NCBI RefSeq assembly: GCF_002896875.1
Contig: NZ_CP023278.1
Span: forward strand, 5,650,501-5,714,500
DNA: 64,000 nt
Source of the DNA: Nostoc sp. CENA543
Lineage (GTDB): Bacteria; Cyanobacteriota; Cyanobacteriia; Cyanobacteriales; Nostocaceae
Direction: 5' to 3'
Part shown: positions 61,118 through 64,000 of the stretch, piece by piece
Layout: each line of letters begins with the position of its first letter
Numbering within the stretch: the stretch's first letter is position 1
Notes under the pieces: generated by a model
The model's input: only the letters and a program-made list of their open reading frames with translations
Database searches by the model: none
What the model was told of the DNA's origin: nothing
Translations under genes and position numbers: made by a program

Positions 61118-62137
61118 TTATTCTTCAATCGCTGCGGGAATCTCTTCCACTAATTCTTCAGTTTCGGTAGCTGCGGGAATTTCTTCTTCAACAGCACTAA
61201 TCTCTTCTGCACCTTCTACGGGGAGAGTAATACCTTGCTGTTTAGCCAGCATTTGTTCTCTGTACTTAGCTGCCATTTCTTCGGCTTTATCATAAACCAA
61301 ATCACGGTTTTTAATCATATCGCCGGGTTCTGGCTCTAACTGCTTAGTAGACAGAGAAATTCTACCTCTTTCAGCGTCTAAATCAATGATCATGACTTTA
61401 ACTTCATCATTCACATTGAACACACTGTGGGGTGTATCGATATGTTCGTGAGAAATTTCTGAAATGTGCAGCAAGCCACTAACACCACCGATGTCAATAA
61501 ATGCACCGTAAGGCTTTATACCGCGCACTGTACCGATAACTACTTCGCCTACTTCCAGGCGGTTCATCTTGCGTTCAACTAACGCGCGACGATGAGATAG
61601 AACTAGACGGTTACGTTCTTCGTCTACTTCCAAGAATTTTAAAGGCAGTTCTTCACCGACTAAATCTTCTTTTGGTTTGCGGGTGCTAATGTGAGAACCA
61701 GGGATAAAACCACGTAAACCCTCAATTCTCACCAATGCTCCCCCACGGTTGGTGGCGAATACGCCTGAACGCACGGTAGCATCTTCTGCTTGTAGCTGTC
61801 TAACACGCTCCCAAGCACGCATATATTCAATCCGACGGATGGAAAGGGTTAACTGTCCATCTTCATTTTCATCGGTGAGGATGAAAAATTCCCTGGTTTC
61901 GTTGGATTGTAAAACTTCTTCCGGGGCATCAACCCGGTTTATAGACATTTCTTGTATAGGTATATATGCTGCTGTTTTAGCACCAATGTCAATCAGAGCG
62001 CCACGCGGTTCTATACTAAAAACTGTACCTGGTACGATATCTCCGGGGCTAAAATGATAATCGTACTTGTCTAAGAGGGCAGCAAAATCTTCGTGAGTAA
62101 ATCCAATTTCTGTAGCGGTTAAGTTCTGATTGACCAT
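61118..62137 (-). CDS. rpsA: 30S ribosomal protein S1
   Basis: A 339-residue S1-repeat protein that helps mRNA binding to the 30S subunit. Three S1/OB domains are visible: about 31-100 (GDIVPGTVFSIEPRGALIDIG), 118-185 (VFATNRGGALVRIEGLRGF) and 197-268 (GEVVIGTVRGIKPYGAFIDIG). The third is the most canonical. The tail from about residue 305 is rich in Glu, Ala and Ile. Cyanobacterial and chloroplast S1 proteins have three domains rather than the six of E. coli, so the length is normal here. A strong terminator follows. Confidence 0.95.
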   Translation of the reverse strand: MVNQNLTATEIGFTHEDFAALLDKYDYHFSPGDIVPGTVFSIEPRGALIDIGAKTAAYIPIQEMSINRVDAPEEVLQSNETREFFILTDENEDGQLTLSIRRIEYMRAWERVRQLQAEDATVRSGVFATNRGGALVRIEGLRGFIPGSHISTRKPKEDLVGEELPLKFLEVDEERNRLVLSHRRALVERKMNRLEVGEVVIGTVRGIKPYGAFIDIGGVSGLLHISEISHEHIDTPHSVFNVNDEVKVMIIDLDAERGRISLSTKQLEPEPGDMIKNRDLVYDKAEEMAAKYREQMLAKQQGITLPVEGAEEISAVEEEIPAATETEELVEEIPAAIEE

Positions 62138-62428
62138 GCTGATTTGTTCCTGGTTCTAGTCTCCGTAAAGGTTATGCCATAATAGCGATTATGTATGCAA
62201 CTGCCTAATTCGGTAGTGTACATTTAATTATCTTTCAATCCTAGCGCAGAAAAGCTGGTGCTAACACACTTCAACTTCCAGACAGATTATTATATCATAA
62301 ATTGTTGTGCCAGGTAGAGACAGTTTGCCACAAGAGGGTATTGGATTTGGGTAAAAGAGTTGCTGAGTCTTGATTAGACAACTACTTTAAATATTTTTGG
62401 CATTTAGAATTACTTAACCCCTTAATTC

Positions 62429-63538
62429 TTAGAATTGGTAGATATCTTCTGAGTCAGGGTTTAAGTATGTACGCTCCATGTCAATTCCCATACTAGAAAA
62501 TTGCTCAATTATCGATTTCATTCTCTCTTCTGGTAATTGATTTCCCTGTTCCCAGGATAATAACAATCCATTGGCAATTAATTGGCAACGGTGCATTCCG
62601 AAACTTTCCTGATTTGTCAATTTTTGCGCTACTTCTTCCGCTAGTCCCATTCCTGGTGCGAGGTATTTGGTAAATAATGGCACTTGGGGTTGGAAGTATT
62701 GCTGATGACTGCTGTATATGCTTTGAATGATCGGACGAATAGTCGCATAGTCTCTTTTATCGAAGTACAGCACTCCTGAATCATAACGCCCGTAATCACC
62801 TGGATTATACAAAACCTTGAAACTAAAAGGTATGCTAATTTCATTGAGAGCCTGGGATATTGCTCCCATCAGAGCAATTGCACCTCTACTAGTCAAATTC
62901 AGATAAATTCTGACCATAATAGGACGAATATCCAGATTTTGTCCATAATTTGCTCCTGCATCACCTACAGCCATATAAAAGCCTTTTGTGAGCAAACTTT
63001 TGGGCATTTTAATCGATACACTATCACCAACATTTGCATTTTGTTGTAATTGGGACAGATGTTTGGCGCGTTCTATATGTAGTTTTAATCCTTTTTTGGT
63101 GACAACTAAATTACCGTCATCTTCTTGTTTGATAATCTGCCAATTTGCGTCAAAATATCCTGTACCGTAGTTATTGGCATCGATTTGTTGATGAAAGTCA
63201 GCGTCTATATCCGAAAAAGCATGATTTTCAACATCTAAACGTTGGTTGGATGGTGTTTGATCGAGTCTTAACTTAGATTGAAGAGAGCCATTATAATAAA
63301 TGCCGTAAATATAAGTACGTAATTGTAGACTGAGATATTGTTTTTGAGTTTCTGGTGGCATTTGAGAAAAACATTCAACCATATTAGGCGCAAGTGCCAA
63401 AGGTTGATAATGAGGGTGATGGATGGAAAAATCAGCATGGATGGCAATTTTTTGAGTAATGTCTTGTAATGTGTCAATTAATGAAGTGTTGACAGTTCCT
63501 TGATTGGATATTTGGAAAAAATTAAGTAATTGCATCAT
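62429..63538 (-). CDS. HopA1-domain protein (lanthipeptide lyase-like)
   Basis: A 369-residue protein resembling the T3SS effector HopA1 family (PF17914). Supporting segments are TYIYGIYYNGS (about residue 92), VSIKMPKSLLTKGFYMAVGDAG (about 184-205, cited in parts), RIYLNLTSRGAIALMGAI, and FKVLYNPGDYGRYDSGVLYF. In class V lanthipeptide clusters, a HopA1-like protein acts with an APH-like kinase as the dehydratase/lyase half. Here it begins 21 bp after a truncated APH-like kinase gene on the same strand, so they are likely cotranscribed. No precursor peptide was found in the window. The start is an ATG pair at 63535-63538. Confidence 0.85.
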   Translation of the reverse strand: MMQLLNFFQISNQGTVNTSLIDTLQDITQKIAIHADFSIHHPHYQPLALAPNMVECFSQMPPETQKQYLSLQLRTYIYGIYYNGSLQSKLRLDQTPSNQRLDVENHAFSDIDADFHQQIDANNYGTGYFDANWQIIKQEDDGNLVVTKKGLKLHIERAKHLSQLQQNANVGDSVSIKMPKSLLTKGFYMAVGDAGANYGQNLDIRPIMVRIYLNLTSRGAIALMGAISQALNEISIPFSFKVLYNPGDYGRYDSGVLYFDKRDYATIRPIIQSIYSSHQQYFQPQVPLFTKYLAPGMGLAEEVAQKLTNQESFGMHRCQLIANGLLLSWEQGNQLPEERMKSIIEQFSSMGIDMERTYLNPDSEDIYQF

Positions 63539-63559
63539 AGTTTTTAGAAAGTAATTTAC

Positions 63560-64000
63560 TTAAGCGATCGCAGGCTGATTGATGAATTCACGAGCAGCAT
63601 TACCAAAGATAGTGGGAATTGATTGTTCAGGACGACATAACAAACTTTTAGCTACTTGTAGTAAGCAAATTCCAGTATTATCAAAGGTGCTTTGATAGTG
63701 CAGCATCACACGAATTTGTTGAATCAAGGCAAAACCAGCACATTGTATGAGTTGTGGGATAAAATTTGGTCTATCTACTAATATTTCTGGAAATTCTTGG
63801 AGATAAGCCTGGGTTAAAGCTGCAATAGTAGGTTGAATTTTTTCTAGTGGTGTATTCGCTAATCTTAAGGATTGTTCAATAGTGAGAGATTGACTAAAGA
63901 GTAAACTATTCAGCCAAATCAGCAGATAGCTACCGATGAGTTTACCTAAATCCAATGCTGGATCTCCCCAAGTGGAGCGTTCCCAATCAATGAGGCGAAT
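63560..64000 (-). CDS. APH-fold phosphotransferase, C-terminal part (runs off the window)
   Basis: The frame is open to the window edge; 147 residues are visible and the N-terminus lies beyond 64000. The visible part begins IRLIDWERSTWGDPALDLGKL, the kinase-fold segment in which the Asp of IDWE binds metal (equivalent to DFG) and GDPALDLG is typical of aminoglycoside/choline kinase-like (APH) proteins. The catalytic HxDxxxxN loop should lie just outside the window. The remainder is helical, with two cysteines in the C-terminal part (ICLLQVAKSLLC). It precedes the HopA1-like gene by 21 bp. Confidence 0.8.
   Translation of the reverse strand: MRLIDWERSTWGDPALDLGKLIGSYLLIWLNSLLFSQSLTIEQSLRLANTPLEKIQPTIAALTQAYLQEFPEILVDRPNFIPQLIQCAGFALIQQIRVMLHYQSTFDNTGICLLQVAKSLLCRPEQSIPTIFGNAAREFINQPAIA

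What the first reader, a model, noticed from the sequence alone, without database searches (positions are those of the whole stretch)
62429..64000. APH-like kinase plus HopA1-like protein: a class V lanthipeptide-type pair at the window edge
Two adjacent co-directional genes, 21 bp apart, encode the two families that together phosphorylate and eliminate Ser/Thr in class V lanthipeptide maturation (APH-type kinase and HopA1-type lyase). The kinase part shows IDWE and GDPALDLG; the HopA1-like part has the family segments. No LanB/M/KC/L gene is in the window, and no precursor was seen, so this may be either a RiPP cluster continuing to the right or an uncharacterised two-component protein modification system in cyanobacteria.
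Basis: partly seen in the sequence, partly recalled or inferred. Interest (0 to 1): 0.82.

Follow-up and report, generated by a model that had tools for sequence, protein, structure and literature searches.

The report
Peptide-dehydrating enzyme pair with relocated precursors
Two neighbouring cyanobacterial genes look like the kinase and lyase that make reactive residues in a small peptide, and the likely peptide genes now sit far away on the chromosome because a genome rearrangement cut their gene cluster in two.

Summary
A 386-aa APH-type kinase (its 5' part lies beyond the window) and a 369-aa HopA1-type protein lie 21 bp apart. Both keep their catalytic residues. The HopA1 model's best PDB match is LxmY of the lexapeptide dehydratase. 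The pair belongs to the cyanobacterial HopA1/kinase group already published as RiPP "Family 1A" (PMC8153245).

No precursor was found beside it. Comparison explains why. In 8 of 8 other genomes checked psbB adjoins rpsA. In the window genome and two relatives HopA1 adjoins rpsA, while psbB adjoins an array of 52-aa double-glycine precursors. The breakpoint maps to one short interval. A further relative, which lacks this pair, keeps related precursors and export genes at the pair's upstream neighbour. Best reading: the maturase half of a split cluster, acting in trans. All 15 full array copies keep Thr8 and Cys11 in the 14-residue core, which predicts a Dhb and perhaps a methyllanthionine.

Side finding: a precursor-less paralogous pair lacks the lyase's general-base lysine at 31 of 31 loci.

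The parts
62429..63538 (-). HopA1-type (LanY-like) phosphopeptide lyase, 369 aa, with R210, K241, R251, Y258 and H41 intact
   Evidence: PF17914 192.9 bits; residues; AF2 model pLDDT 87.1, pTM 0.85; best PDB match LxmY 9dk3_B, TM 0.69, E 6e-17
63560..64000 (-). C-terminal part of the APH-type (LanK-like) kinase; the whole gene runs to window-equivalent 64720 (L013:9560-10720, 386 aa)
   Evidence: PF01636 38.9 bits, NF038156 E 5.2e-24 below cut-off, catalytic K54, H219, D221, N226, D245 intact in 3 of 3 window-type kinases
62300..62428 (.). rearrangement breakpoint interval between rpsA and HopA1; in relatives the rpsA side continues into psbB
   Evidence: homology of the psbB-rpsA loci of G390, G129, G392 and G087 to the window genome ends at L013:8299-8308 (window 62299-62308)
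61118..62137 (-). rpsA (S1-domain ribosomal protein), new neighbour of the pair; not part of the system
   Evidence: S1 domains; adjacent to psbB in 8 of 8 other genomes checked

Best explanation
The pair is a class V-type (LanK + LanY) peptide dehydratase: the kinase phosphorylates Ser/Thr in a precursor core and the HopA1-type lyase removes the phosphate, leaving Dha/Dhb. It is the maturase half of a RiPP cluster that a chromosomal rearrangement split. Its likely substrate is the 52-aa double-glycine peptide encoded six times in tandem beside psbB (G000:C1:258826-260448), modified in trans. Invariant Thr8 and Cys11 of the 14-residue core predict one Dhb next to one Cys, perhaps closed to a methyllanthionine; a C39-type ABC transporter would cut after GG and export the product. 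Shown: families, fold, intact residues, both junctions, joint retention, purifying selection. Inferred: enzyme-substrate pairing, the chemistry, ring closure, export.
For: Fold and active-site match to LxmY/CaoY. Kinase residues intact. dN/dS 0.12-0.13 (kinase) and 0.16-0.25 (HopA1) among three genomes. Precursors sit beside the pair at 58 of 60 loci outside the L015 and window clades, and downstream of HopA1 in sister loci L030, L032, L051, L063 and L072. Array peptide and window-type HopA1 occur in the same 3 of 13 genus genomes. psbB-rpsA adjacency in 8 of 8 others, HopA1-rpsA and psbB-array in these three, breakpoint mapped. G087 joins the AI-2E gene to precursors and SurA-HlyD-PCAT; that export block is 82% identical over 5.5 kb to the one beside the G107 array, and the first leader is 79% identical to the array leader in DNA. 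Thr8 and Cys11 invariant in 15 of 15 copies.
Against: No expression, binding or product data. The three genomes look like close relatives, so the co-occurrence is one event. No genome with pair, array and exporter still together at the AI-2E site was found. The G107 array runs over two contig ends. In G129 and G178 the two ancestral sites lie on the same strand, so one simple inversion from that layout does not give the observed orientation. No free LanC was found, only a LANC_like match in a 1106-aa frame. Three other pairs in the genome could serve the array. Core Thr4 and Ser14 are not conserved.
Confidence: 0.66

Rival explanations
1. A trans-acting dehydratase for other precursors: the pair is active but serves other double-glycine peptides of the genome (those at L016 or L017, or the single one at C1:2031043), not specifically the psbB-side array.
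For: The genome holds 12 leader-profile matches at E below 1e-6 in four places, and many sequence-diverse leaders are shared by this enzyme family.
Against: The L016 and L017 peptides have their own pairs in cis. The junction evidence ties this pair to the array.
Confidence: 0.17
2. The pair has left RiPP biosynthesis and modifies a cellular protein or small molecule.
For: No precursor in cis at 3 of 3 window-type loci; stable position between AI-2E and rpsA genes; APH enzymes commonly act on small molecules (established knowledge).
Against: Catalytic lysine kept in 3 of 3, unlike the L015 type; nested in a clade with cis precursors; the precursor half still exists and has been retained.
Confidence: 0.1
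3. The array is matured by another enzyme, for instance the LANC_like (probably LanM-type) protein at C1:843646, and the window pair is a remnant.
For: The genome has one LANC_like match in a 1106-aa frame close to a C39 peptidase match.
Against: dN/dS far below 1 for both genes of the pair since the split; this leader family is tied to HopA1/kinase loci (58 of 60).
Confidence: 0.07

Closest known systems
Cyanobacterial HopA1/phosphotransferase 'Family 1A' RiPP clusters (Eyles et al. 2021, PMC8153245; passages read)
   Same: Adjacent kinase and HopA1 genes in cyanobacteria; several double-glycine precursors with conserved leader and variable core.
   Different: Here pair and precursors are in two places after a rearrangement; the array core has an invariant Thr and Cys, whereas the paper reports no conserved Ser, Thr or Cys for Family 1A cores.
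Class V lanthipeptide dehydratases LxmKY and CaoK/CaoY (PMC12141560 and PMC9486802; passages read)
   Same: Kinase plus HopA1-type lyase, same lyase fold, Arg/Lys/Arg/Tyr at matching spacing (31/10/7 here, 32/10/7 there).
   Different: 18-19% identity to LxmY in the fold alignment; no LanX or cysteine decarboxylase noticed beside the pair; different, double-glycine leader; no exporter in cis.
Thioamitide TsaC/TsaD (PMC8153245, passages read)
   Same: APH-type and HopA1-type proteins both needed for a Thr dehydration.
   Different: No YcaO/TfuA thioamidation genes were noticed at the window locus (not searched by profile).
Pseudomonas syringae HopA1 effector (PDB 4rsx, 4rsw; search listing only)
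   Same: Same Pfam family; weaker fold match (TM 0.39).
   Different: A secreted effector of a plant pathogen; nothing here suggests secretion of the enzyme.

Membership tests
Class V lanthipeptide dehydratase (LanK + LanY) | APH-type LanK kinase with intact catalytic residues | tested here: met
   PF01636 over cut-off, NF038156 E 5.2e-24 but below its equivalog cut-off, residues intact
Class V lanthipeptide dehydratase (LanK + LanY) | HopA1-type LanY lyase with Arg/Lys/Arg active site | tested here: met
   PF17914, LxmY fold, R210/K241/R251
Class V lanthipeptide | precursor with Ser/Thr and Cys in the core, encoded with the enzymes | tested here: inconclusive
   Not in cis; a candidate array with Thr8 and Cys11 lies elsewhere in the genome
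Class V lanthipeptide | (methyl)lanthionine in the product | not testable with these tools
   Needs mass spectrometry of the product
Class V lanthipeptide | LanX and (for AviMeCys) cysteine decarboxylase in the cluster | not tested
   None noticed among the ORFs around the pair; no profile search was made
Cyanobacterial HopA1 Family 1A | cyanobacterial HopA1 protein beside a phosphotransferase gene | tested here: met
Cyanobacterial HopA1 Family 1A | double-glycine leader precursors linked to the pair | tested here: inconclusive
   Linked at 58 of 60 loci outside the L015 and window clades; for the window pair only through the reconstructed rearrangement. Leaders were not compared with the paper's own logo

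The most novel reading that the evidence does not exclude
In this cyanobacterial family kinase/HopA1 pairs have left RiPP clusters at least twice. The window pair did so by a rearrangement yet remains a trans-acting dehydratase for a distant array whose product is a small methyllanthionine peptide. The L015-type pair left for good: in 22 of 24 HopA1-bearing family genomes it has no precursor, usually lies beside a DUF815 ATPase gene and often beside phylloquinone (men) genes, and has Gln/Glu/His for the general-base lysine under strong purifying selection, so it would be a phosphorylating, non-eliminating enzyme on an unknown substrate.
Probability: 0.35. Interest if true: 0.75.

Novelty: new variant of a known kind. 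Interest (0 to 1): 0.57.

Why it matters
It shows that a precursor-less HopA1/kinase pair need not be an orphan: mining that looks only at neighbouring genes would miss both halves. It names one enzyme-substrate pair to test, with a 14-residue core and a single invariant Thr/Cys couple, in a group of cyanobacterial RiPPs for which I saw no described product in the listings of my searches (open-licence papers only). The lysine-less paralogue asks whether a peptide dehydratase can turn into a dedicated kinase complex.

Tried and rejected
Led nowhere or rejected. (1) A precursor beside the window pair: ORFs of 20 aa or more around it were listed and L013 was scanned with an iterated leader HMM; none. 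(2) A degenerate DNA leader pattern in L026: no match. (3) NF038167 (CTB bacteriocin) as precursor finder: only matches below its cut-off. (4) A plain single inversion: not claimed, because in G129 and G178 the AI-2E and psbB-rpsA sites lie on the same strand. (5) AI-2E next to rpsA as the old order: rejected; rpsA was not found in the roughly 7 kb fetched beyond the AI-2E gene in 5 of 5 other genomes. (6) search for related loci in genome contigs gave 2 loci, one useful. (7) The 3-of-13 co-occurrence is not used as statistical proof. (8) Genus g6 (G191, G334, G375), which has the L015-type pair only, gave 0 leader matches at E up to 0.01, but so did G205, whose locus L041 holds divergent leaders, so this negative is limited. 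(9) A literature search for split clusters gave 0 papers with at least 4 of its 5 terms, which says little.

Rows dropped: by my count one search lists 106 HopA1 matches, 102 of them not the window genome's; 80 were fetched (47 of 47 in family f1) and 22, mostly low-scoring or truncated, were not. Nif11-type peptides were left out of precursor counts. Four fused proteins were cut to one half for alignments and tree. L050 has no kinase and is absent from the kinase alignment. Fetched flanks are short at contig ends (L057: 4.5 kb), so zero counts there are weak. One L046 ORF holds X from unread bases.

Full report
OBSERVATION. The two ORFs are real. The HopA1-like gene (window 62429-63538, minus strand) encodes 369 aa. 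The kinase starts beyond the window and encodes 386 aa (L013:9560-10720). They are 21 bp apart. Pfam gives HopA1 at 192.9 bits and APH at 38.9 bits; NCBIfam gives class V LxmK at E 5.2e-24, well under its cut-off. The window genome (G000, 7.2 Mb) has four such pairs: L013 (window), L015, L016, L017.

FAMILY. Of 388 genomes drawn from the class, 68 carry HopA1. I examined 85 loci: 4 own, 1 of Nostoc sp. CMAA1605, and 80 of the 102 other matches. A kinase is adjacent or fused at 84 of 85 (exception L050) and fused at 4. An iterated leader profile found double-glycine peptides at 58 of the 60 loci outside two clades; the exceptions are L050 and L106. This matches the published cyanobacterial 'Family 1A' (570 peptides, 183 clusters; PMC8153245, passages read); PMC9486802 likewise reports cyanobacterial 'type-B' candidates (passages read). 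Most cores lack Cys: 27 of 160 contain one.

TREE. The HopA1 tree puts the window protein with L026 and L091 (support 100/100) inside a 10-row clade (100/99). In other members precursors lie downstream of HopA1 (L030, L032, L051, L063, L072), followed in four of them (not L032) by divergent genes of the same clusters as the SurA-, HlyD- and PCAT-like genes of L017. The three window-type loci have no precursor and share the order AI-2E transporter, kinase, HopA1, rpsA.

MECHANISM EVIDENCE. The AlphaFold2 model of the lyase (mean pLDDT 87.1, pTM 0.85) matches LxmY best (9dk3_B, TM 0.69, E 6e-17), then the P. syringae HopA1 effector, then, weakly, class III lanthipeptide synthetases. In CaoY, K219A lost lyase activity, R187A nearly so, and R229Q was inefficient; Tyr236 was assigned by alignment and His57 proposed as helper (PMC9486802, passages). 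By the printed LxmY alignment (residues counted by me) and spacing these correspond to K241, R210, R251 and Y258 of the window protein, intact in 3 of 3 window-type proteins. That H41 equals CaoY His57 is my guess. Kinase catalytic residues are intact. dN/dS is 0.12-0.13 for the kinase and 0.16-0.25 for HopA1.

WHERE THE PRECURSORS ARE. A genome-wide leader search found, besides peptides at L016 and L017, a six-copy array at C1:258826-260448 (ends) and a single peptide at C1:2031043. The array encodes 52-aa peptides with leader ...GEDSFIHELNEQEISDVLGG and cores such as LRITVAWTLICVES, between psbB (CP47) and a carotenoid isomerase gene. Among 13 genus genomes the array peptide (82% identity or more) and the window-type HopA1 (75% or more) occur in the same three: G000, G107 and G394. 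G394 is Nostoc sp. CMAA1605 by matching contig coordinates and identity. The three look like close relatives, so this is one event by descent.

THE SPLIT. psbB adjoins rpsA in 8 of 8 other genomes checked. In G000, G107 and G394 psbB adjoins the array and rpsA adjoins HopA1. Mapping four reference psbB-rpsA loci onto these genomes puts the break in one interval (for L207: psbB side to 1188, rpsA side from 1334-1342), between window 62300 and 62428. At the other end G087, which lacks this pair, has AI-2E, four precursors, SurA, HlyD and PCAT in a row, then further on rpe and two neighbours (rpe). Its SurA-HlyD-PCAT block is 82% identical over 5.5 kb to that beside the G107 array, and its first leader is 79% identical in DNA to the array leader. 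G107 has the same rpe-side neighbours beyond PCAT. Simplest history: AI-2E > kinase > HopA1 > precursors > < SurA < HlyD < PCAT, broken between HopA1 and precursors; G087 later lost the pair. Against a plain inversion: in G129 and G178 the two sites lie on the same strand, so more than one step may be needed. In G107 the array runs over two contig ends, so continuity is inferred. In G000 no exporter lies beside the array, but the genome has 11 C39-peptidase matches.

PRODUCT PREDICTION. In 15 of 15 full copies (6 G000, 3 G107, 6 G394) the core keeps Arg2, Trp7, Thr8, Cys11 and Val12; Thr8 is the only invariant Ser/Thr. One Dhb with a Cys three residues on would allow a small methyllanthionine ring. 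The only LANC_like match is in a 1106-aa frame elsewhere, so ring closure is a guess.

SIDE FINDING. The L015-type pair occurs in 22 of the 24 HopA1-bearing genomes of family f1 (which I take for Nostocaceae, because CMAA1605 belongs to its genus). None of the 22 loci has a precursor in the fetched flanks. A DUF815 gene is near in 19 of 22, a 4HBT thioesterase gene in 13, and MenE/MenC/MenA genes in 10. The lyase lysine is Gln (19), Glu (2) or His (1) in these 22, against Lys in 56 of 60 other proteins. In 13 of 13 genus genomes it is Gln; 9 are new, hence 31 of 31 without Lys. The main kinase residues are kept, except Asp245 in 1 of 22. HopA1 dN/dS is 0.06-0.09. I saw no paper on it in the listings.

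NOVELTY. Enzymes and leader association are known. The split cluster with mapped junctions and the defined substrate prediction are new as far as my searches of open-licence papers go.

Noticed in passing
G000:C1:4918792-4921304 (L015:7792-10304) and 30 further loci: A second, precursor-less kinase/HopA1 pair, often beside phylloquinone (men) genes, in which the lyase's general-base lysine is Gln, Glu or His at 31 of 31 loci while the kinase motif is kept.
   Followed up: partly
L095, L100, L105, L106: Kinase and HopA1 fused in one protein of about 790-820 aa (4 of 85 loci); three of these loci have a nearby precursor with an Arg-rich core, as do some unfused loci of the same clade.
   Followed up: no
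L050:6491-7582: The only one of 85 HopA1 loci with no kinase detected; Nif11-type peptides lie upstream.
   Followed up: no
L123:7044-7292 (G000:C1:2031043), L126, L127, L129: Single double-glycine-leader peptides away from any HopA1, with long Gly/Tyr/Ser-rich cores ending in Cys.
   Followed up: no
L030:5557-5742: The cis precursor of a sister-clade pair has the core SITICWQNKTTRWRSISICWD, echoing the ICW stretch of some array cores.
   Followed up: no
G000:C1:843646-844710: The genome's single LANC_like match, in a 1106-aa frame close to a C39 peptidase match; probably a LanM-type enzyme.
   Followed up: no
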